NCBI GenBank assembly: GCA_001683735.1
Contig: LUGG01000038.1
Span: 62,001-126,000, forward strand
From: Grifola frondosa
Lineage: Eukaryota > Basidiomycota > Agaricomycetes > Polyporales > Grifolaceae
Reading direction: 5' to 3'
Length of the DNA stretch: 64,000 nucleotides
The notes under the pieces are model-generated. The model saw only the letters and a program-made list of their open reading frames with translations, did no database searches and was not told where the DNA came from. Each line of letters begins with the position of its first letter. Positions within the stretch are counted from its first letter, which is position 1. Positions 9,512 to 25,133 of the stretch are shown piece after piece. Both the position numbers and the translations under genes were made by a program.

Positions 9512-10398
9512 GTGCCACTAGGACCCCTGATAATCGGAGGGAAGGGGTGATGGAAATTCGGACAAATTTTGGGATTTTAGACCCCCCATGCCTGATTTAA
9601 TCCGGACAATACAGCCTTCGGCGCGCGGAAGGCCAGATTTTTTATCCGGACAACCCATCCCTTGACCGAGCAGGCCTGATGTCCGGACACCGATTGTCGG
9701 TTGCATAATTTACTCCGATAAGTTTAAATTTTGCACCAATTAACTATACATTACGAAAGAAATGGGCTTATATTAACATCAGTCTATCGTCACGAAGTGA
9801 TAAGTAATTAAGCAATACCTGAACGTCATATAGTTCTCAGTTTTATTTATAATTTATGATTATTGTTAGATCTATTCAATTTGTATCTAATCAGTGGAAT
9901 AACATTCTTTCGGCCGCTCGATATCTATCTCAAGATGCATGTATATCTCGCCGTACGAACGGTGTTACGGCTCTCATCAAGGGATGTCCAGCCTCGTCAG
10001 TCGTGTGCGTGCTAGTTGCGTGCACCAAGTCGAAGCGAAATCCCGCTTAGCTGGGTGGGCGCTAGGTGCCGGCGTCCGAGCTCAGCGAGGAGCCTTGAGG
10101 ACAGAGAGGCAGGAGGTGTATTTTCAGAGCACATTCGATGTAAATTAGAACTTTTGAGTGTCTGTTGGCCGTGTCCAGCCAGAAATCACGCTCGGAGACG
10201 CCTGATGGGACAATCCGGACAAAATATCAGCTCCGTAGGGCCTGATGGAAAATCCGGACATGTTCGCCGCTTCGCGGCGAGCCCTGATTTAATCCGGACG
10301 ATTCAGACCAAAATTGGCCTTTTTATCCGGACAATTTTGCCAAAATTTCTTTCCAAAAAATCAGCCCTTTCCTACATTATCAGGGGTCCTGTGCCACT
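9512..10398. mobile_element. Non-autonomous hAT-like element, copy 2 (inverted), with 8-bp target duplication
   Basis: The body is 9520-10390 (871 bp) and is the reverse complement of the element at 3312-4183 apart from a very few differences, such as one base in the terminal GGTAGG stretch. It is flanked by GTGCCACT on both sides (9512-9519 and 10391-10398), a different 8-bp target from copy 1. That proves two independent insertions rather than a segmental duplication. It carries no transposase. The near identity implies recent movement. Confidence 0.88.
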
Positions 10399-12799
10399 CA
10401 CCTGCTGCAGCGTCGGTGGTGGCGCCCCAGTCAGGAAGCTCTCACGCCTGAGGCGGGACTCCTGAGGCGTGACAGGCCCCGGGCAACTCCACTATACGTT
10501 TGTCTGAAATTAGCCTTTTTGAGAGCCCAAAATCGGCCAAAACTAGACTCGCAAGCCAGTCGTTACAGCGCGTCGTTCTCCATTCTAGATTAGGCAATTA
10601 TAGATGTTCTGTTTTAGGAAGTACTACCGAATATAGAAGGGGCGGAGTGCGAAAGGAGAAGACGCGCTATAACGACTGGGCAAACTCGTCGCCTTTTGCC
10701 AGGTGGAGCGTGAGAAAATTGACTTCGTGAAATCGCGCTTTACATGTTTAGGGCGGCCACCTCAGTTCACTTTTTTTTGCCATATATCTCTATTCCACAC
10801 TTAAAATGTGAGAATCAGGTCATGTAAGATACTAAAAACAATGGTGAGGTATAATCAGGCCATGTAAGATACTAAAAACAATGGTGAGGTAAGAAATAAT
10901 GTCAGTGAGGTGGTGGTGGAGGTTGGTAGTGATGAAACTCGAGGGGCACTGGAGACGAGGACTCAGGAAGACCCGATAGCTGCGAGGCGGAACCCGTGAC
11001 GGTCCTGGCACATGTGCAGAAGGACCGGTAAAATGTGGTGCCAAAGTTGGACCACTCGATGATGGTGGTGAAGGTGGAAACATGGAGGTAGGGCAAAGAT
11101 GGTGCATGCATATGATGTAAATGTGGCGCGTGGACGTATGGGGAAGACGGCGCGTGGATGTACTGGAATGCGGTGCGTGGACATATGGGGAAGGCGGCGC
11201 ATGGACATATGGCAGCGCATGGACGTATGAAGGCGGGGTATGGATGTACGGTGAAGTGGCACTTCGAAATACCTTGACGGCATGCATGAACATATGGCGA
11301 GAGCGGTGCATGTCATGACGAACGCATGGGGGTTCTAGGAAAGCCGTCTGTAACAGGCTCGACCAATAAACTCGGAGCATCCTGTATGAATAGATATTAG
11401 TATGACTGTCGACAGCTGGTACCGGACTTACCGAGTCGAAAGTGGACTCAGCAGAGGATGTCTCACTTGATATGGATGAGTTGAATAGCAATTAATAGGA
11501 TTTATATTACATATTATGATGTAGCAACAGAATCGGAGGGAGATATTCGACAGTGGGAGAAGCTTGATTTCACGGTCAATTCTCCCATGCTCCACCTGGC
11601 AAAAGGGTGCCCAATTTGCCCAGCCGTTCTGGCGAACAGCAGGAGTGCCACGACGGAGTTTGAATCTCTAATCGCCAGAACGGCTGGGAACGAGCCTAGG
11701 CCAAAACCTTGTCCGAGTTAGCATATTTTACCCCCAAAATTGGCCTAAATGCCCCGAATCTTTGTCCAGATTTAGCCTTTTTGACGGCCACTGGCCGGTC
11801 AACTTCCGAGATTGCATGCTCGAAAAAGTGAAAATATGTATGAGTGAACAAGGGTGAACACTGCAGAGACTCTGGTTATCGTATTTATCCCTTCGAATGT
11901 ATCTTCTATTCAAATGGTATGTGATGTTCAATATAAATTGATACCTCATGTACTTAACCAAGAGCTTTAGGATGCGGGTGGAGACTTCGACAGGAATCTG
12001 TCGGACATCGAACATGATCCTGCCACACATTTCTCTTGTTGCAGTCATTCCTCGGACCTTCACACTTATGGCCATGCCAGACACCTTTTGTATAATTTAG
12101 GTCCAGATATAATGTCCGGAACACCGGACAACATGGTCCTCAGTTCCGAAGCTACTTTACACTGGAGAGCATTGAATAAATAAAAGGTGCAGAAGTTGAT
12201 TATCAAGATACCAGGAAGAAAGCACATAGCGGGGAGGATCAATTAACACCTCGTAGATACAAATTAGACTTATTCGACATTGTATTCCTGTCCAGACGGT
12301 CCACCGTTTGCGGTTTGGAACACCTAATCGTCCCACGGAAGCCCACTAGTTAGTGGTGACAGACCGTACCGTGTGACGCCTCTAGTTAGTGTAGTAACCA
12401 GGCTGGGCTCTTGCCCGTGAAGAAATATGTGGAGAGCTCTAGAGCATTAAGGTCACCACCCCTCGAAAAAATCTCACGCAGGCGCATGCCAGCGCCCGGT
12501 GGCTGACTTCCACAATTTCCGACGAGTTCCGACCAAGTCTGGACTTTTTGATGCACGTGCATTCCCCGCCCCGCGCGCTCATCGTTCTGCGCGTGCCTTG
12601 TCATTGCCCCGCCCCGATGCGCGTTTCCTCTAGAGCGCTCCTCCGCAAGTTAATTTTACCACGTGATGACTATTCCCCCGCACACCCATCTGCGCTTATC
12701 TCCATGTCCCTCAATTGATTATCTCGCTTCTAACTTACTGAGATTGGAGTTCTACCTGGTTCAACTACACTTCGATCGAATTTACCCAATACGGAGGCG
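10399..12799. repeat. Repeat-rich non-coding region with inverted arms, tandem repeats and a hairpin
   Basis: Imperfect inverted arms lie at 10671-10733 and 11566-11629, sharing the core CTTTTGCCAGGTGGAGC. A two-copy, 40-bp tandem repeat is at 10813-10892. Degenerate repeats of about 25-30 bp built on GCGTGGACGTATGG-like units are at 11120-11270. A perfect 15-bp inverted repeat (11621-11635 with 11672-11686) adjoins the right arm. The TTAGCCTTTTTGA sequence occurs near both outer sides (about 10509 and 11773). It looks like a decayed transposable element of about 1.2 kb. The 219-codon minus frame at 10832-11491 is only the translation of the tandem repeats. From 11.8 to 12.8 kb nothing is recognised. 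Confidence 0.55.
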
Positions 12800-13148: not shown

Positions 13149-15211
13149 ATGAATGACTCCGATATCGTTGTGATTCTCCCCACCCTCGACGCCCCCATGG
13201 CCGACCCTCACAACATACCCGTCAATGCTCGACATCTCAATCCTGCTTCTTTGGCTGCTCTTCGTGACTGTCTTGGCCGGGATGCACGATATAATTTATA
13301 TCAGGACCGTTTCGACATTGCTGACTTGGCGTGGTTCGTTGCAGGAGCGCACGTTGATGGTACTCACAACACTTCCATCGATCACTTTCATGAAGCCTTT
13401 CGGATCACCCGGCAGGGTGGTGCCACTGGTGCTGAAGGTGCACGGGTGCGGCGGGAATTTTGTGAGAAGCTGATGGGAGCGGTACTTGATTTTGTGAGTA
13501 CTCGCTTCATTCACCATTGATCGCTCTCATGCGGCGTTGCAGTTGACAGTGTGGGATCGTGTGTCAGGCGGCGTGTCCATCATGATCCACATCGACGGCG
13601 CTCAGCCGCCTGGCTCGCTTCTTTTGCCTGAGCACGTAAAAGCTCATGCGTACTTCAACCCGGCGTTGATGGCTGAGCTCCCCGGAGCGAGGGTCTCGGT
13701 GGCGCGTCTCGCGCAACAGTTCATTGTCGACTTAGGTGTCCCAGCTGTTGCGCGCTGGACAAGAGCCTTCAAAAACGAAGGATACAACCTCCCTCGTGGA
13801 CAGACACAGGAGGCTCCTTCTATCTCTTCGATTGTCCCACAGTCTTCACCTGGCTCGTCTCACTACCTGTGCTTTGGCCAATCTTCGATGGAGTTTGATC
13901 GTCTACTTCAAGCGTATGTTAATTCATCTGCGACCAACAGCTCCTTTCCAGCTGTTAGTGGAGTGTTCTACGTGCCAGCTAGCATGTCGTCTGCATCGCA
14001 GCCCGTCCTCACTACGACTACACCACAGTCCGCGCGTACAGCCCCTGCATCCCAGCCCGCACCCCTGCGCACATCGACTCCGGAACCTGGCGCAACGTTG
14101 ACAGTGCGTGCTGCTCGCACAGCGCCCGAGACACCTCGACGGGTCGTAGAAGTGAGCGACGCCGAGTCAGATGCGACAGATGTCGAGTTGCAGATCCTTC
14201 AGAGCCGCATTGTGAGTTGAAGCAATCCAATGCCGCATACAAGGTCAAAATAAAGGAGTTTCGCCAGGAAGTGAAGCGTCTTCGTGCAAGTATGTCTATT
14301 GCTCATATTTCTCCAATATGTTACTAACTTTACCTGTTGACAGCGCTGGAGTCGTCGACGCGCAACGTCTTGAATACTGGTGTGGGCGTCGAGCATCATG
14401 CTGGTAAGCTGTCTCTCATAACAATAGATATGTCCTAAGTTCGTCTCGGAAAGGCTCGCAGTTACCGACGGGCACCCCCTCGAGGACTGGCGTGGGTGTC
14501 GAGCATCGCGCTGGTAAGCTATCTTACCTGTATCAATAAATATATCCTAAATTCATGTCTGAAAGGCCCGCAGTCGCCGACGAGCACCCCTCAATGACTG
14601 ATGCGGGTGTCGAGCATCACGCTGGTAAGTTACAGCTATATTATTAATAGATATGTCCTGAATTTGTCTCCAAAAGGCTTGCAGTCGCCGACGCGCACCC
14701 TCTCGACGATTGGTGCGGGCATGGAGCGCCATGCTGGTAAGTTACTTCTCATAACAATAGATATGTCCTAAATTTGTCTCGGAAAGGCCCGCAGTCACCA
14801 ACGCGCTTCCTCTCGAGGAGATCACCTCATACGCCGCCTCTGTCACCGACATTATCCTCCGTTTCACTAGCAACAATTAGTGTGTCAGAAATCCCGCCGC
14901 CAGAGCCTCTCTTCCGTCCAATTCGCTCAATTGGACATCGCACCAATGCCATACTCCGTGAGCTCGACATCCCACTTGATCGCAACACATTTGATGTCCT
15001 GTGGAATGTTGTTCGCTTGGTCAACGATCATGATTGGCCTGCATCAATTACCGAAGAGTTGGATGTTTCACCTGAGTATGGTGAAATGATTTCCAATGCA
15101 ATGCAGGCAGACATGCCTCGGTAAGGTGCGCGGATAATGTCCCGCTACTGTGTGGTGCTGCCACGTCATTCTTGCAGTCAGTTTCAGATGTTTGCTTCCC
15201 ATTGCCGATGA
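13149..15211 (+). CDS. Uncharacterised multi-exon protein with a tandem array of duplicated 20-residue exons
   Basis: I do not recognise the family. Exons that rejoin in frame are 13149-13493, 13543-14211, 14268-14289, 14344-14403, 14454-14513, 14566-14624, 14677-14736, 14787-15120 and 15178-15211. The first two encode an Ala/Arg-rich globular part followed by a Ser/Thr/Pro-rich linker; a short charged segment EVKRLRA follows. Four exons of 60 nt (one of 59) then encode 20-residue repeats of the type SPTRTxSxxGxGxEHxAG, each followed by a 50-52-nt intron. The last part contains PPPEPLFRPIRSIGHRTNA and a charged C-terminal domain. The 59-nt copy loses one C and creates a stop if included. Because all copies are phase 1-1, skipping it keeps the frame. 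The start at 13149 is the first Met after a good context; 13198 is an alternative. Confidence 0.6.
14344..14786 (+). repeat. Tandem exon-intron array (4 exon units, period 110-112 bp)
   Basis: The exon units are 14344-14403, 14454-14513, 14566-14624 and 14677-14736, and a fifth, partly matching start is at 14787. The introns are 14404-14453, 14514-14565, 14625-14676 and 14737-14786. Every exon ends GCTG before GTAAG and every intron ends AAAG. The intron interiors also resemble each other (shared ATATGTCCTAAATTTGTCT-like core), so exon and intron were duplicated together as one unit. Confidence 0.9.
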
Positions 15212-15381: not shown

Positions 15382-17000
15382 AGCTCTCGTAATGATCTGG
15401 CTGCATCACATGGCCGACGTCTCATACGGCCCCGCGGTGACTCTGTCCGCGAGGCCAATCGAAGCTCCAAACGCCGACAGGCTCCTGCCCTCTCAAGAGA
15501 ACAACGACGCGACAATGCCGAGAAGAGCCGTCAGAAGCAGGAGGCCTTAGACAAAGATATAGATGCATGGTTACAAAAATGCGAGACACTCTCCGAGGAG
15601 CTTTCCAAAAAATATGGTAAAAAGGCAGAGTACTATTTCACGCTCATGTTCGCACGCGGGCAAAGCATGGCAAGAGTCGAAAGCCCAACCTTTACAATGC
15701 ATGGTCGCATCATCTCGCGAAGTTGCACAATGGTACGTACATTAATTATCTTTATTTTGCGATGCTAACTTGTTCGATAGATGACGGCTCTGACGCTTCG
15801 AACTTACTCGATCTACAGAGGGAGAATATAGATGACTATCGTAATCTCACCGCCGAACAGAAGACGGAGCTAATCAATGACCTCATAGAAGATCGAGACT
15901 CGCGGTCGATGGGACGTCGTCTCAGCCAACGGAGCCGGACGCAAGACATCAACAATGTCATTGAGCAGCTTATTGACATTGTAAGTTTAAGCCTTTACAG
16001 CTGATAAAGTTCTCTACGGTCTGACACTCTGATTTTCAGATTCTGGGTGCTAAAGCTCGCTCCGGAATAGACGGATTCTTCTGTCTGTTTCCAAACTCAG
16101 TAGAATTTCACATGGCCCCGCGGTGGTTCTTCACGCTCGAGCAAATTGAGACCTTTCTCTGTCATAATGTGAAAGGATGGGATACAAACAAGATTGGTGC
16201 ATCCGCTGAAGCATTCGTGACTGCGGGATGCAATTACATGCATACGTTCATTCATACAACCTATAATGAAATATCTGATAATGTTTTACAGAGTTCTTGC
16301 GGACGTCGAAAGCGCAGGCTGATTGGTTGAAGGCGGAGATCCGTCGGTTGATCAACAAGATGCTAGGTTAGTACTGTATCTAGTCCATTCGCCACCCGCT
16401 CACTCATGTTTGGTAATAGTCGATATTACAGGCAACGAAAAAGCCGTCATGAACTACGTCAGTTACGAGCGGGATATTGTACTACTCTATGGGATCGAGC
16501 TCGTCGGATGGACAATGGACAAGTGGGCGAACCCTTCCGACCTCAGCAACAGCATTCCCCCGCTGCAGAAGCTCTATTCCGCACTGGAGAGTGGCCAATG
16601 CCACTTTGTTCGTGTCGGCATGACGGATCTGAATGAACGGCGAAAGGCGTACGATGCGAAGGTTGCCGCGGGATTGGTACCTCCTCGAAAAACACGGAAG
16701 GATGCAGGGACGAAGCGTGCACCGAGGGTCGAGGTTTCGAAGAAGAGGAGAGCTGTTGAAGATGAAGATGGTGGTGGTGACATTTCGCAAGCTTCGAAGC
16801 ATCATCGAGGTGGGGGAAGTGTAACCACTCCCGAGGTGCAGGAGATCCCGGGCCAGCATGGCCCTCCAGTGGAGCTGGAAGTCCCGCAACAATTCGAACA
16901 GTCATTTTTCGACACCAACGCGGCCGCTCTTCGTACAATCCAGCTGTACATGCAGCAGCAGATCAACCACTCTCAGTTACAGGTCCCTCCTAATCCGTAG
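15382..17000 (+). CDS. Uncharacterised Agaricomycete protein with MNYVxYE core and Lys-rich tail (5' end not resolved)
   Basis: The exons read are 15382-15732, 15781-15980, 16040-16245, 16292-16366 and 16432-17000. Segments such as KPNLYNAWSHHLAK, LTAEQKTELINDLIEDRDSR, EKAVMNYVSYERDIV and LVGWTMDKWANPSDL resemble a family that I recall as highly repeated in mushroom genomes and often associated with mobile DNA (recollection, not a search). The C-terminus has basic, nuclear-signal-like stretches (EVSKKRRAVED) and a Gln-rich end. One base appears to be missing near 15660, in an AAA run between GRGQ- and KHGKS-like segments, which breaks the first exon into two frames. The start codon is not identified. 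The role is unknown; transposon cargo or a host gene both remain possible. Confidence 0.5.
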
Positions 17001-17499: not shown

Positions 17500-18107
17500 T
17501 TACATGATGTTGCGACTACCTAGATTGTCAATATACTCCACGAGATTGTCACCGCCATGCTCGCCACTGAGCTCAATGATCTCCTCGTTGCTATCACTTT
17601 CATCATTGTCCATTGCATCGCCATCTTGCGACGTTGCGGCTACCCACGACGGCAATGGCAACCCTATTGAAGCCTGTGAGTCTCGCCCGACACGATGACC
17701 ATAGCTCAAGTTTCCAGTGAACCCGCGAAGTTGAGACGTCTTGTGCAGTGAGTGAACGATACGCTCGTTGATGGCATTGCGATACCGCCAACGAGAGGAT
17801 AGCTCGCATGCCAAGCTGGGGTTAGTGAGATAGGACTGCTGAATTGCCCGGTAGAAGTCGAAATGCTCGTCGACCATGGAGGAGAAGAGTCGATTGATCT
17901 CGACATTCAAACGAAAAATTTCCTCGTGGGCACGCTTCATATTGAAGTAAATATTCATTGCCTGGCGATTGGCACGTTGCGCGAAGGGCAACGTTCGGAT
18001 GTCTGCACGAGCATCACGCAGCACGTCGATGTAACAAATTTCCGATTTGGACATAGACGCCCAGTAGGCGCTGGGACGCGTCGCGTTGATCACCTGCAAG
18101 ATCAGGT
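17500..18107 (-). mobile_element. 3'-terminal fragment of a KDZ-type (Kyakuja-Dileera-Zisupton) transposase
   Basis: The frame ends at 17500 and encodes about 200 residues. It resembles the C-terminal tail that I know from fungal KDZ transposases: a coiled, Arg/Glu-rich segment (INRLFSSMVDEHFDFYRAI), then NAINERIVHSLHKTSQLRGF, then TGNLSYGHRVG, then an acidic end. A good acceptor (CTTGCAG, complement of about 18090-18098) precedes it, so it looks like a last exon. The catalytic DDE part and the Cys-cluster domain are absent upstream, where a Gypsy Gag relic on the opposite strand begins. The domain assignment is by pattern, not by search. Confidence 0.5.
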
Positions 18108-18460
18108 GACGGTTGAAGGACGAGTGTCATATGATGACACTGATTGGTGAGCGGATGAGTAAGGCATATTGTGGGAAGTGGCCATACGTACGCAAACGGA
18201 CTTTGCTATTTAAGTTTGATTTTGCTACCTGGAACGTCAGCTCGTTCAACTTCGTTGAACATTTCTTTCGTTGCCAGGTAAGCAGTTTGTATATTAGTTG
18301 TATTTAATATAACTTCGTTGAACATTGCTTTCGTTGCCAGCTGTTGCCCAAACGAAACCATCCGTACGAATCTCAACACCGGGAGTAAGCGTACTCTGCG
18401 TGGTTTTGGTGATTCGTTACAGTTTGAACGAGCTTTGCTTACCTCCCCTCGTCGATTTCA
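18100..18460. other. Non-coding; contains a 30-bp direct repeat
   Basis: Thirty bases at 18248-18277 recur at 18311-18340 with one mismatch (core AACTTCGTTGAACATT). No gene is seen. This is the junction between the KDZ fragment and the Gag relic. Confidence 0.5.
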
Positions 18461-20993
18461 GTGACTTCCATCACACGCTACCAGGAGGGCAGCTGGGTGA
18501 CCGTCGTTGCGCACAACGACATCGTCTCTGGAGAGGAGGTCATCACTGAGGACGAGGCCGCTGACGTTGTCGCCAGGAGCGCGGCCTTCATGGAGAAGTC
18601 CCCCGTTACAACCCCGTTCCCCAGCAGAGGAGGAACGAGTTCCCCACCGAGATCGCTCGGAACCCCATCGACGCCGCTACGAACGCCGAGCGTCGAACAT
18701 TTCGAAGAGACCCGCGCTCTCTACATCGAGACCGAGGACGACTGGAAGCCCCAGGAGTTCGTCGTCACCCCCATCGCCGACGACACCCAGCGTGTCTTAG
18801 GCTATTCCCTGCAGTCCTCACCGCCGTAGGACTTTCCCAGTTCAGCTTCAAAGCGACGCACTCGGTCGACGACCTTCGGTGGCACGACCACGCCCGCAAC
18901 GTCCCGTACGACGTTCGCCTCTCCCTCATCTCCTTTCGGTCTACTTGACCAATATTCTCTTTACTCTTGACGACAATCGCCCCCTTCCCCTGTGGGAGAT
19001 TTTCGACTTAGTCAACTTCCATTTCGCCTTCCGTCAGATTTACGAAGGCACGTGGAAACGTGCACAAGTCGTGCGAGGAAGTCGCGGAACTCGCGAAGCG
19101 TCTCTTTGAGACCAACGTGCAGTATTGTGAGAAGTACTGGCTGTAGGTCGAGGGAACGGCGAGGGCCTAGTATCGTGTAACAATTGTATTCACTCCGCTG
19201 CTTGAGAAAAAAGAACTTGTTTGTGACACATGTCCAACCCGTGATCGTTCTTATCGTTACCCAAACTGTCGTCACCACTATCTCTATCCTCTCCATCGTC
19301 GGTCTCTTCTACTACCTCCTCCGAACCTACACAGAGGTTCATATACGAGTCGCAAGAACTCCCAGGACAGACGGAGGAATCTTCAGCCCGGTCCGCGACT
19401 CCCACCCATCCGGACGAGTCTCATGGACACAGCCGGACCATCCGAGAATCCGTGGACACCCGCGGAAGCCACGGCGATTCCTCCTCCTCCTCCACAAACT
19501 CAGGCCCAACAAGAGCTCGAAGCATTCGTAACCAGGGTGGTGACGAACCTTCTCGCGGAAGGCCTGACCGATCATACCCGCCGCATCACGACACTCGAGG
19601 AAGACTCGACCTCACTGACCCGGTGGTGAACGCCGGAGTAGGTCGGGTGAACGCTCTCGAGGAAGAGAACAGGGCCGGATCGCGGACGCAGTCGCTCTAG
19701 CAGACAGAGCATCGAAAGCCGAGGCGAAGGCCCATCAAGCCGACCAGGTCGTCCAGGAACTCCGGGACGACATCGCTTCGTTGAGGCTGTCGATCAAGAA
19801 CCTCAAGGCTCGATGTCTACTCTCGAGAATCGTCCTCCCGAGGAAGGTCACGCTCTCGTACGTCCAGACATTCGAGCCGGAACGTTTCCTACCGGCCCGC
19901 CTTCCCCATTCCAGACCCACGACCCGCTTCACCCTCTCCCCCGCGACGACTGATGTCTCCGCTCCCGACTACGAGAGGGCCCGCCGCGCCGCGCGGGGCA
20001 CTATTCGTAAGCCCAATTCCCTGCTCCCGCACCCTTCACCAAGCCTACGAAGGAAATGACCGCGGAACAGTGGATGAAGGCATGGGAGACGTACTTCGTT
20101 TATTACGAAGTCCAATCATCGACGGATCGTATCGCTCTGATTCTTGGATCGCTCAAGGAGGGAGCCCTAGACTGGGCATCCTCTTACAGTGATAGTTTTA
20201 AATAACAATGTTCCCGTCGGTTCATGGGAGGATTTTAAATTCCTCGGACAGTACGGATGCCTAGACTCGCAGTTCGACGCTCAGCAGGCGCTGATGCGTC
20301 TTCGCAACGACGGACCGGTACAATCATATGCCGAACACTTCCGTCGCTGGGCCCCCGCATCCGGGCACAACCAGCAAACCCTTCTCTCGCTGCTTCGGAC
20401 CCAGGTCAAGCAGTCAATCCGAGACGCGATCGCCGGACGCAACCGGACACCTGGGAGAAGTACCTCGAACGGGCCCAACGAGTAGATCAAGCCCGCGGCA
20501 CTTACGCCCATCCCGGATCGTCTCCACAGCAGTCAAAGACGACTGCTTATCGTCATCCCCACTCGCAGAGCCAATCTCACTCTGCCCCGACTCATAACCG
20601 TGACCCTAACGCGATGGACGTTGACCGCGCCGCGGCACGCGCAAAGGGCGCGTGTTTCGTATGCGGCAAGGTGGGCCATCTGGCAAATGCATGCCCAGAC
20701 AAGAAGCCCAGCGGGAAGTCGATTCGCGAGATGAGTATCGACGAGTTAATTCGCCTTGTAGGACAGGAGCTCGTCGAGGAGAAGAAGAAAAAGGCGGTCG
20801 ACAAGGGCAAGCAGAAAGAGATTGCCAAGGAACCCGAGTCGTCGGACAAGATCAAGGAGATAGGAGCAATCGGCACGTCGTCGTCGACGTGGAATACGGA
20901 TTTTTAGAGCGGCCTCATGTCGTCCCTGCTGACGTGAAGGCCTCTCTCTCTCGCAACCACCAGACGAAGAAGAAAATAAAATCGGCTATGTAA
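18461..20993 (+). mobile_element. Decayed Ty3/Gypsy retrotransposon Gag region, no pol
   Basis: Successive pieces in different frames read as a retrotransposon Gag. A Ser/Pro-rich N-terminal part is near 18460-18830. A coiled coil (EENR...AEAKAHQADQVVQEL) is near 19640-19810. A capsid-like segment beginning TAEQWMKAWETYFVYYEVQS is near 20056. This is followed by QSYAEHFRRWAPASGHN, and then a CCHC zinc knuckle (CFVCGKVGHLANAC, C-x2-C-x4-H-x4-C) near 20657-20700 with a Lys-rich tail. Several frameshifts separate the pieces. No protease, reverse transcriptase or integrase follows: within about 160 bp of the end of Gag, F-box/LRR sequence begins. No LTRs were found. It is a truncated relic. Confidence 0.75.
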
Positions 20994-21069
20994 GCAGTTC
21001 CGATGATTTTCGAATAGATACGATTCATGTGACTACCCTTAGGCTCTGTGCGGTCATATAACCTCACAG

Positions 21070-22397
21070 GAATGGTCGCGATTTCAATGCTATGCTAAGC
21101 GCATCCGCGAGTTGACATGGTCGTACGGAACGAGGATCGAACCTTCGGCGATCTTCTATTTATTTCAAAGGAACGGTGGTGCACCTCTTCTACCCTTGAT
21201 GAAGAAGCTGATATGGCGCCCATCATCACACACCGAAACGACGCCATTCATGCTCGCCTCCGAAAGCCTTCGAACACTCCACATTGCATTGGATGATATC
21301 ATTTATCCTGAGCTTCGGTGGAAAAGAAGAGGAAAATGCGAAAAAGTGCTACTGAAGGGCGATAATCGCACAACACGAGACCTTAATATCGAGATGCTCT
21401 TCACTACGATGCAATCCATCGCCCCCTTCCTCAAACACATTGACATAACCGGCTACCTCCATCCATTTTCCTTGTTGCCGCTCGCCAAATTCCCTTGTCT
21501 TCGAATTGTGGACCTGCACAAAACCATCGTCGACATGCGCGTGCTGCGCGCTCTGTCCACCCTGAGAGGCTTGGAAGACATGACGATCGACTTCGGTATG
21601 CCTCCCGGAAACATCCCTCGTTGTGATGGGTTCTGCTCTCTTCTCAGCTTGGTGGTGGTTGGACGTGCCGCGGGCCTCGCACAGCTCTTCACTTCTATAT
21701 CTCCTCCAAAGCTCGATGCACTCTACATGACGTTCTCGAATGACTGGATCGAGACGACTTCTGGCTTCCGTGTCTGTCTGGAGAGTATTCGCTCGGCGTC
21801 CTTTTCCCAATCTCTCGGTGAGATCAGCGTTACGATCTTACCACGTTGGAAGACAAAGGATTTCCTGACGGATCTCATTGAGCCACTGCTGTCACTCAAA
21901 ATGGTGGATTCGGTCAGCTTGAAACTTGATGAAAGCGGATATTCAGTCTCGACGCAGGATATAGAAAACATGGCGTCCGCATGGCCCAAGTTGCAGAAGC
22001 TGGTGATGAGATGGATGCCCGCCTCCGTCCCCCCGCCGTCGAGTGTTTCACGAGCTTCGCGCGCTATTGTCCCGTCCTTAAGGTCTTGGTTCTATCGAGC
22101 ATAGATGTCAAGTCGCCCATACCTGGGGAGCCGTATCCGGCTATGCCATTCGGTCGTAAACTGCAGACGTTGACCGTGACGGATAAGCTCGACATCGCGA
22201 ATCCAGACGCGATAGGACAGTTCGTGAACCATCTGTTCCCCAATATTCAAGCCCAGATGTACTCCGTGGTTGACCCGGTTGTAGGGTGGGATGCCGTATT
22301 GGAAAGCGGTTGGCGTATGCCAAAAAATCAGGAGGGAAGAACTGGACCACGGGGGAAACAAGCTGGTACCGCAAAAGAAGTAGGCCATATGCCGTAA
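21070..22397 (+). pseudogene. F-box/LRR-type protein paralog, 5'-truncated and with one frame break
   Basis: The segment from QEWSRFQCYAKRIREL (about 21070) to 22397 aligns by eye along its length with the intact paralog on the opposite strand at 23420-24751. Compare FYLFQRNGGAPLLPLMKKL with FYLYRYNHGKPLLPLLKEL, and VDMRVLRALSTLRGLEDMT with LDMRVLRALSALPCLAELT. The body is a series of Leu-rich, solenoid-like repeats. The N-terminal F-box exon is missing; upstream lies the Gag relic. The first frame stops at 22104, and the homologous C-terminus continues in another frame from about 22040, with the shift at a seven-C run. Truncated F-box copies without the F-box could not dock to Skp1. It may be a relic or an assembly artefact at the C run. 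Confidence 0.65.
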
Positions 22398-23419: not shown

Positions 23420-25133
23420 CTACGCAGAAAACATAAATACATCACACGACGGCGCACGGAAACTGCGCACTTCGACGACCGACACCGTCGGTTCCGTCGG
23501 CTCACCGAGCGTCGTCGCACACTCCTTGGCCGAGCTGCGAGACTGGCTCAGCGACATGAGCACCGTGTTCCACCCCACAAACGGGCCCCCCGGCGGGACT
23601 GTCGGATCCAGCTGCGGGAATATCGCGTCGATGAACCGCGCAATCGGCACCGGGTCCGCGATCTCGAGCGGCTCCGTGATGTGCAGGCGATGTAACCCAT
23701 GCTCGTACGCCGGGAACGGCTCCGCGGGCAACGGGGCGCGGACGTCCAGCGCGGGCAGCATCGCGATCGACAGCTGCGGGCAGCACCGCGCGAAGTGTGC
23801 GAGCGCCTGCACGGACGGCAGCGTGTCCCATGGCACGAACGACAGCATCAGCAGCTTCAGTGCGCGCCACCCGCCCGCCATCAGCTCCATGTCCGCGTCT
23901 GGCATTGCGATACGCGTGAAGCGACTCCGGAATAGCACGTGCTCGAGCTTGTGCAATGCGAGCAGGGGCAGTATAAGTTCCGTCAGGCGCACCTCCGTGT
24001 TGCACCGCCCGAGCGCGGCGACGCACAGGTGGCGGAGGGAGCTGAACTTGGTGCGCATCAGCTCGAAGCATGCCAGATAGCTCGCGGGGTGCGTGGACGA
24101 GCTTGTGATGTATAACGACTCAAGTGGGGGCGATATCGCCGTGAACAACCTGGCGATGCTTGACGCTCGACCGTTCAGCGTCAGGAAGTGCAGCGAGGGG
24201 AAGCCGGAACAGTGAGAATATTCGCCTGGGCCAATCGACACGCTCGCCGTCAGCTCCGCCAGGCACGGGAGTGCAGAGAGGGCTCGCAGCACGCGCATAT
24301 CGAGGTCGATGTCTCGCACGTCCATCTTTCGCAGGTGGGAGAATGCGGCAACAGGAAGGAGGGAGAGCACGTTGAACCAGCCCGTGAGCTCGAGGTCCTT
24401 AACTAAAGGCACTTGGGAATGCAGACTACGCAGGAGCATTTCGATGCTGTGATCCCGCGTAGAGCGCGACTTCCTCTGCGTGTTGGAGAGGAAACCGCCG
24501 AACTCGATCCTGAGACGGATGAGATGCTCTGGCACGAGGAGCAGCGCGGACGTATCTGAGGGAGAATTGGGGCGCCATCGTAACTCCTTCAGCAATGGAA
24601 GTAGAGGCTTTCCATGGTTGTAGCGATAGAGATAAAATAGCGCGGCGGGGTCGGGGGCAGTGCGAGTCACGTACGACAACTTGCGAACGCGCCGCGCGTA
24701 AGACTGGAAACGCGCCCAGTCATCGGTGGTTATCTCTCCGGCAAGAACCTGCTGCGTTTTGAGTTGCAGATCAGCCATGTGAGAGTCATTGTTATCGACT
24801 CACGTGTCCCATTGCTATGTCCTCTCCGTCGTCTTCTTCTTCATCTTCATAGTCGGAATCATACTGTCGGGCGGCCTGGAAGCACGAAATAAGCTCGAGG
24901 AGTGGCACAAAGCCTTCTAGCCTCCTCCACAACGCGTCCAGAGCGGGATCAGCGAACATTCTGCAAACACGAGCAGACCGCGCCAGTGCCTGGCGTTCAG
25001 CCCGGCCATCTCCCGTAAGAACACCTGTAGCTTCATCTAATTTCGAATCCCAGCGGTCCAAGTCAGGTATTGGGGGAGACAGTTGAAGGAATATTTCGCG
25101 CAGAACATCGTAGACACCTAGAGCACGGTGCAT
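23420..25133 (-). CDS. F-box and leucine-rich-repeat-like protein
   Basis: Exon 1 (25133-24804, 110 residues) holds an F-box-like N-terminus: VYDVLREIFLQLSPP, then LARSARVCRMFADPALDALW, which matches the fungal pattern of an F-box followed by the 'VCR...dPAL..LW' helix. It ends in an acidic stretch. Exon 2 (24751-23420) follows after a 52-nt intron and encodes 443 residues of Leu-rich irregular repeats. The total is about 553 residues. Such proteins are substrate adaptors of SCF ubiquitin ligases and form large lineage-specific families in mushrooms (family knowledge). The frame at 23060-23308 (VSIHKRILDLRDGHTGAELL) could be a further C-terminal exon beyond 23420, since good donor and acceptor sites lie between, but the joining phase is not settled. 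Confidence 0.75.

What the first reader, a model, noticed from the sequence alone, without database searches (positions are those of the whole stretch)
14344..14786. Tandem array of complete exon-plus-intron units inside one gene
Four near-copies of a 60-nt phase 1-1 exon, each followed by a near-copy of a 50-52-nt intron, stand in a head-to-tail array with a period of about 110 bp. A fifth exon begins with the same motif. Because the exons are symmetric and three of the four are a multiple of three, units can be gained, lost or skipped without changing the frame. This makes a length-variable 20-residue repeat (SPTRT...GxGxEHxAG) that could vary between strains or between transcripts. The arrangement is directly visible; the functional meaning is inference.
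Basis: partly seen in the sequence, partly recalled or inferred. Interest (0 to 1): 0.75.

Follow-up and report, generated by a model that had tools for sequence, protein, structure and literature searches.

The report
Exon-intron tandem repeat in transposon gene
A real head-to-tail array of four exon-plus-intron units sits in one gene of the maitake mushroom, but the gene belongs to a broken copy of a known type of transposon and the repeats appear to be changing freely, so it is a neat but mostly ordinary example of tandem duplication.

Summary
The array is real and at the stated coordinates: four units (exons 60, 60, 59, 60 nt; introns 50, 52, 52, 50 nt), 71-80% alike, far above chance. The window is Grifola frondosa (gene A0H81_14082). 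The deposited gene model joins the same four exons, the third from a later acceptor, but it is a prediction on the same sequence, so no independent proof.

The suggested function is not supported. Exon and intron parts differ equally between copies (0.25 and 0.24), replacement and silent changes are equally frequent, and third codon positions show no excess; relatives of the gene show a strong one. None of the 10 paralogous loci found has such an array; all 10 have splice signals for one intron at this place.

The gene travels with a second gene on KDZ (Kyakuja-like) DNA transposons. Two relatives have 1.1-kb terminal inverted repeats and 7-bp target duplications. The window copy keeps only a piece of the transposase gene.

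Best reading: local tandem duplication multiplied an intron with its neighbouring exon segment in an unconstrained linker of a decaying transposon gene. Multiplication of whole introns in this way is known. The 59-nt exon may be a sequencing error, since one-base indel errors occur elsewhere in the assembly.

The parts
13197..13493 (+). gene A exon 1
   Evidence: homologous to other loci in the genome; model rebuilt
13543..14211 (+). gene A exon 2; its 3' end begins a coiled-coil-like stretch
14212..14267 (+). annotated 56-nt intron that overlies sequence which paralogs read as coiled-coil coding sequence: either an intron that hides a one-base frame break or an artefact of that break
   Evidence: paralog readings; used in P0001
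14268..14289 (+). short exon, end of the coiled-coil stretch
14290..14343 (+). intron C; donor, branch-like motif and acceptor for an intron at the same place in 10 of 10 paralogs; weak resemblance to the array introns
14344..14403 (+). array exon 1, 60 nt, phase 1-1
14404..14453 (+). array intron 1, 50 nt, GTAAG..AAAG
14454..14513 (+). array exon 2, 60 nt
14514..14565 (+). array intron 2, 52 nt
14566..14624 (+). array exon 3, 59 nt (51 nt from the GCAG acceptor used in the deposited model)
14625..14676 (+). array intron 3, 52 nt
14677..14736 (+). array exon 4, 60 nt
14737..14786 (+). array intron 4, 50 nt
14787..15124 (+). last exon of gene A (stop included); starts with about 30 nt of the unit, then the conserved C-terminal segment
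   Evidence: C-terminal hits at C5, C14, C3; the deposited model uses a later acceptor and ends early
15382..16997 (+). gene B, second gene of the transposon module (several exons, not modelled; outer limits from open frames only)
   Evidence: matched part 15490-16216; DNA similarity 16422-16719 to other loci; open frames
17503..18126 (-). remnant of the 3' part of a KDZ transposase gene (assigned by position in the C6 element), convergent with genes A and B
   Evidence: 49% identity over 195 aa to the ORF just 3' of the KDZ domain in the C6 element

Best explanation
Unequal crossing-over or replication slippage multiplied a roughly 110-bp segment that held one intron and a neighbouring exon stretch, in the serine/proline/threonine-rich linker of gene A of a KDZ (Kyakuja-like) DNA transposon copy. 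Because the segment carried complete splice signals and a 60-nt exon part, each copy became an exon + intron unit and the frame mostly survived. The ancestral gene had an intron at this place (intron C), so the gene probably went from one intron to five by duplication. Since then exon and intron parts have drifted at the same rate; only the splice signals look held. The transposon copy has lost its transposase core and has no terminal repeats that I could find. Shown: array, divergence pattern, absence from the paralogous loci found, intron signals at the same place in paralogs, transposon context. Inferred: splicing in life, the mutational mechanism, origin of the array introns from intron C, lack of function.
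For: Array score 471 against at most 46 in 200 shuffles. Mean divergence exon 0.252, intron 0.241, permutation p 0.84. pN 0.27 and pS 0.28 over exons 1, 2 and 4 (exon 3 left out), and variable columns 6/12/9 at codon positions 1/2/3 over all four, against 15/9/41 and 17/9/42 differences in two exon stretches of family members L028 and L031; Fisher p 0.009. No such array in the 10 paralogous loci fetched; donor, branch-like motif and acceptor of one intron right after the coiled-coil motif in 10 of 10. Array intron core (up to 3 mismatches) three times in the genome, all in the array. Donor GTAAG and acceptor AAAG invariant in 9 of 9 columns, p 0.004. Context: genes A and B together at 11 loci; KDZ domain E 8.2e-43, convergent within 6.2 kb at 8 of 10 loci; TIRs of about 1.1 kb and 7-bp target duplications.
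Against: No transcript data, so splicing of the array is not shown. Intron C resembles the array introns only weakly: for intron 4, 61 of 5000 mononucleotide shuffles score as high; for introns 1-4, 138, 198, 336 and 41 of 1000 dinucleotide shuffles do. The repeat exon's second half has no visible source in the last exon. The longest invariant run across units is not unusual by itself (p 0.21). Small numbers: four units of 60 codable bases cannot exclude weak selection. TRF misses arrays below about 70% identity, so an old array in a paralog could escape.
Confidence: 0.75

Rival explanations
1. A functional, length-variable linker: units are kept because inclusion of 1-5 copies by exon skipping or by unit-number change between strains tunes the spacing between the coiled coil and the C-terminal domain.
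For: Units are symmetric and mostly 60 nt; splice signals invariant; 11 of 54 splice combinations keep the frame through to the conserved C-terminus; linkers of the family vary in length, and the nearest paralog L027 has a 30-bp repeat downstream of its coiled coil, readable as ...AQEPRTLPVPAQEPRT....
Against: No purifying selection on repeat residues; no more constraint on exon than on intron; one unit out of frame from its first acceptor; 43 of 54 splice combinations fail; gene is in a broken transposon copy.
Confidence: 0.12
2. Plain minisatellite in a dead gene: the supposed introns are no longer spliced and the deposited model is a gene-finder's path round two frame breaks.
For: Neutral pattern; frame breaks in exon 3 and in the coiled coil; the acceptor AAAG is followed 8 nt on by GCAG in all four introns, so acceptor choice is ambiguous; the deposited model is cut short by it.
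Against: Splice core invariant in 9 of 9 columns; all four introns hold an in-frame stop if retained; the exons of 297, 669 and 338 nt are open (the last up to its stop) and alignable to paralogs.
Confidence: 0.1
3. Introner-like element: the intron itself is mobile and inserted repeatedly.
For: Similar introns repeated in one gene (63-88% identical).
Against: The exon is duplicated with it in register; searches of the 39-Mb genome with the array and with the intron core found nothing outside the array.
Confidence: 0.02
4. Assembly artefact (reads collapsed or stuttered in a repeat).
For: The assembly has one-base indel errors elsewhere: 17 indels and 0 substitutions in 3610 aligned bases between two transposon copies.
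Against: Units differ at 20-29% of sites, so stutter cannot make them; only single-base features such as the 59-nt exon are in doubt.
Confidence: 0.02

Closest known systems
Multiplication of a pre-existing intron by tandem internal duplication (Arabidopsis TOUCH3; Gao and Lynch 2009, both as cited in PMC4974935, passages seen)
   Same: A whole intron plus flanking exon sequence duplicated head to tail inside one gene.
   Different: Here four extra units in an array, in a transposon gene; splicing not shown.
Agaricus crocodilinus metallothionein AcMT1 (PMC12508003, passages seen)
   Same: Agaricomycete gene, introns of about 50 bp, duplicated fragment = part of an exon plus downstream intron (and one base of the next exon).
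   Different: One duplication, with the transcript sequenced; here four units, no transcript data and no sign of selection.
Kyakuja-Dileera-Zisupton (KDZ) DNA transposons (Pfam PF18758; PMC12730594, passages seen)
   Same: Related elements carry a KDZ transposase domain, CA..TG ends and 7-bp target duplications, as the paper gives for two Laccaria bicolor Kyakuja families.
   Different: The C6 elements have TIRs of about 1.1 kb, whereas the paper reports none for those two families; no TET/JBP gene was looked for here; the window copy is truncated.
SP7-like repeat effectors of mycorrhizal fungi (PMC11333574, passages seen)
   Same: Fungal proteins with tandem hydrophilic repeats.
   Different: The passages seen describe a conserved intron before the first repeat, not an intron in each repeat.

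Membership tests
Tandem exon + intron duplication (multiplied intron) | head-to-tail copies spanning exon and complete intron | tested here: met
Tandem exon + intron duplication (multiplied intron) | relatives without the duplication show the ancestral state | tested here: met
   no exon-intron array in the 10 paralogous loci fetched; splice signals of one intron at this place in 10 of 10; whole gene models were read by eye and not all copies could be modelled
Tandem exon + intron duplication (multiplied intron) | source intron identified | tested here: inconclusive
   intron C is the best non-array match to intron 4 among 46 intron-like stretches of the window (four of them array entries), but 41 to 336 of 1000 dinucleotide shuffles score as high against introns 1-4
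Tandem exon + intron duplication (multiplied intron) | introns are spliced | not testable with these tools
   no RNA reads held
KDZ transposon (related elements at C6) | KDZ transposase domain | tested here: met
   PF18758 E 8.2e-43 in L052:3983-4441 minus
KDZ transposon (related elements at C6) | terminal structure and target duplication | tested here: met
   TIR about 1.1 kb; TACGGCC and TGTGGAT duplications
KDZ transposon (window copy) | KDZ core domain | tested here: not met
   no PF18758 hit listed within C32:62001-126000; only a remnant of the 3' part
KDZ transposon (window copy) | terminal inverted repeats | tested here: inconclusive
   no inverted repeat over 80 bases within C32:68000-87999 and no match over 250 bases to a TIR of five other loci; the 16-base C6 terminus is absent, but also absent at C14, C5 and C21, so a diverged TIR could be missed
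Kyakuja branch | transposase phylogeny | not tested
   only the 7-bp target duplication and CA..TG ends agree; the lack of TIRs reported for two Kyakuja families does not

The most novel reading that the evidence does not exclude
A transposon-borne gene has evolved a self-contained exon + intron cassette that is added or removed as a unit, so that linker length between a coiled coil and a C-terminal domain can change by DNA unit number or by exon skipping without touching the flanking protein.
Probability: 0.07. Interest if true: 0.5.

Novelty: new member of a known kind. Interest (0 to 1): 0.25.

Why it matters
It is a compact case of intron number apparently rising from one to five at one place in a single gene by tandem duplication, with a family of paralogs that shows the starting state. 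It also shows how a gene-finder's path through a frame-broken transposon gene can look like a regulated repeat. If other strains carry different unit numbers, the locus would let one watch intron gain in progress.

Tried and rejected
Introner or dispersed intron: unit and intron core were found only in the array. Relation of the unit to the 81-117-bp repeats upstream of 6 of 10 paralogs: only 12-15-base matches on the opposite strand, treated as chance. Pfam for gene A: only hits below the families' cut-offs (GST_C_2 E 0.079; Spc29 E 0.00057 over the coiled coil of L031). Homologs in other species: three searches returned only P0001 itself; two of them hit the candidate cap and the method needs shared 5-residue words (it did not return the paralogs either), so absence elsewhere is not shown. 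SP7 effectors as a parallel: the passages seen give no per-repeat introns. Paper searches on exon and intron duplication in fungi: 9 listed; 15 of 55 listed; 15 of 26 listed; it gave PMC12508003 and PMC4974935; none; 6 listed; 2 listed; apart from the papers cited as read in passages, I saw listings only, and the library lacks most subscription journals. I did not predict a structure for gene A.

Full report
What is there. Tandem Repeats Finder reports 110-bp units, 4.2 copies, at 14350-14816 with score 471. The best score in 200 dinucleotide shuffles of 14200-15000 was 46. The four units are 71-80% identical. With donors at GCTG|GTAAG and acceptors at AAAG, exons are 60, 60, 59 and 60 nt and introns 50, 52, 52 and 50 nt.

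Which organism and gene. The window is G000:C32:62001-126000 of a 39.06-Mb genome in 64 contigs. The only protein hit is Grifola frondosa A0H81_14082 (P0001), on a contig of 422448 bases, the length of C32. That the strain is 9006-11 is recalled for the A0H81 tag; PMC10904514 names 9006-11 as the strain of the annotated assembly ASM168373v1 (passages seen). P0001 is rebuilt letter for letter from eight exons, including the four array exons, with a later acceptor (GCAG) for array exon 3 and for the last exon. Being a prediction on the same letters, it is not independent evidence. Its last exon ends early; the AAAG acceptor gives instead a C-terminal segment with homologs at C5, C14 and C3, so the deposited C-terminus is probably wrong.

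Two frame breaks. Array exon 3 is one base short and runs into a stop from its first acceptor. The annotated intron 14212-14267 lies over sequence that paralogs read as coiled coil. Both may be sequence errors. Two copies of the transposon on C6 (L028, L032) are identical over 3610 aligned bases, with 0 substitutions but 17 one-base indels, which I read as assembly error. Another pair (L030, L036) has 61 substitutions and 2 one-base indels in 2200 bases. Decay of the window gene is the alternative; nothing here decides between them.

Selection. Between units, exon and intron columns differ equally: mean 0.252 and 0.241, permutation p 0.84; 27 of 60 exon columns and 22 of 52 intron columns vary. 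Over exons 1, 2 and 4 pN is 0.27 and pS 0.28; read in the two other frames the same exons give pN 0.29, pS 0.26 and pN 0.25, pS 0.40, so the coding frame does not stand out. Variable columns over all four exons fall 6/12/9 at codon positions 1/2/3. In two gene-A exon stretches of family members L028 and L031 differences fall 15/9/41 and 17/9/42, so the family's front part is under purifying selection while the repeat shows none (Fisher p 0.009; the two comparisons differ in age). The splice core (GTAAG, AAAG) is invariant in 9 of 9 columns, hypergeometric p 0.004, but the longest invariant run as such is not unusual (p 0.21). All four introns hold an in-frame stop if retained, and 11 of 54 acceptor and skipping combinations keep the frame to the conserved C-terminus.

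Origin. One search gave 25 matches to gene A: 6 at the locus itself and 19 at 10 other loci (a lower bound). TRF finds no exon-intron array in the gene body at any of the 10. Right after the coiled-coil motif all 10 carry a donor of the form GTNNGY, a CTRAY motif and an acceptor AG giving an intron of about 50-60 nt, at the place of intron C. So the four units are an addition next to an old intron. Intron C resembles the array introns, intron 4 best (61 of 5000 mononucleotide shuffles score as high; 41 of 1000 dinucleotide shuffles), the others less (138, 198 and 336 of 1000). It is the best non-array match to intron 4 among 46 intron-like stretches of the window, four of which are array entries. 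I take origin from intron C as likely but not shown. The unit was found nowhere else in the genome.

Context. Gene B lies downstream of gene A, same strand, at all 11 loci: 27 of 27 matches. Two C6 copies are elements of about 9.65 kb with terminal inverted repeats of about 1.1 kb, ends CACCTAATCG..CGATTAGGTG and 7-bp target duplications TACGGCC and TGTGGAT; the C14 copy has inverted repeats of about 660 bases. The C6 element holds a KDZ transposase domain (PF18758, E 8.2e-43), convergent with A and B. KDZ matches lie within 6.2 kb, convergent, at 8 of 10 loci; at C21 the nearest is 16 kb away and at C43 none was listed. PMC12730594 (passages seen) gives 7-bp duplications and CA..TG ends, without TIRs, for two Kyakuja families. 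The window copy has no listed KDZ core and a remnant at 17503-18126 minus that matches the ORF 3' of the KDZ domain in the C6 element (49% identity; that ORF has no Pfam hit itself and is assigned by position). No terminal repeat was seen in C32:68000-87999, though diverged ends could be missed. It is a broken copy.

Comparison with what is known. PMC4974935 (passages seen) separates creation of new introns from multiplication of existing ones by tandem duplication and cites TOUCH3 and Gao and Lynch 2009 for the latter. PMC12508003 (passages seen) reports, in an Agaricus metallothionein gene, a duplicated fragment of exon plus downstream intron. The present array fits that kind, with more copies. 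Searches of the held library (listings only apart from the papers named) showed no closer case.

Verdict. Observation confirmed; functional reading not supported. Most likely a neutral tandem expansion of an exon-plus-intron segment in the linker of an accessory gene of a broken KDZ transposon.

Noticed in passing
L051/L052 (C6:1274522-1284178) and L053/L054: Two near-identical KDZ elements of about 9.65 kb with TIRs of about 1.1 kb, 7-bp target duplications and two accessory genes without a Pfam family above cut-off (A and B); the literature passages seen report no TIRs for two Kyakuja families.
   Followed up: partly
L028 versus L032: Zero substitutions but 17 one-base indels in 3610 aligned bases: the assembly carries single-base indel errors, which bears on any frame break in it.
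   Followed up: yes
L034 versus L029: 96 of 153 differences are CpG to TpG or CpA in L034 and 1 the other way: one-sided, methylation-type decay of a transposon copy.
   Followed up: partly
upstream of gene A in L028, L031, L032, L033, L035, L036: Tandem repeats of 81-117 bp (in L036 also read as 178 bp) upstream of the start codon in 6 of 10 paralogs; in the C6 copies they overlap the inner end of the TIR.
   Followed up: partly
window 14212-14267: Annotated intron overlying sequence that paralogs read as coiled coil: intronised sequence or a gene-finder artefact at a frame break.
   Followed up: partly
window 9516-10400: 87% identical over 905 aligned bases, opposite strand, to a stretch just outside the second C6 element: an unrelated repeat.
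   Followed up: no
window 10813-10891: 40-bp unit twice at 97% identity.
   Followed up: no
C21:123000-142999 (L055, L056): A 3319-base inverted repeat with 100% identity close to a gene-A copy.
   Followed up: no
window 20239-20907 plus: ORF with a CCHC-like stretch (CFVCGKVGHLANACPDKK), possibly a retrotransposon gag (recalled motif, not searched).
   Followed up: no
window 21043-22104 plus and 23420-24799 minus: Two facing ORFs whose starts look alike by eye (SQEWSRFQCYAKRIREL, TDDWARFQSYARRVRKL), possibly an inverted gene pair.
   Followed up: no
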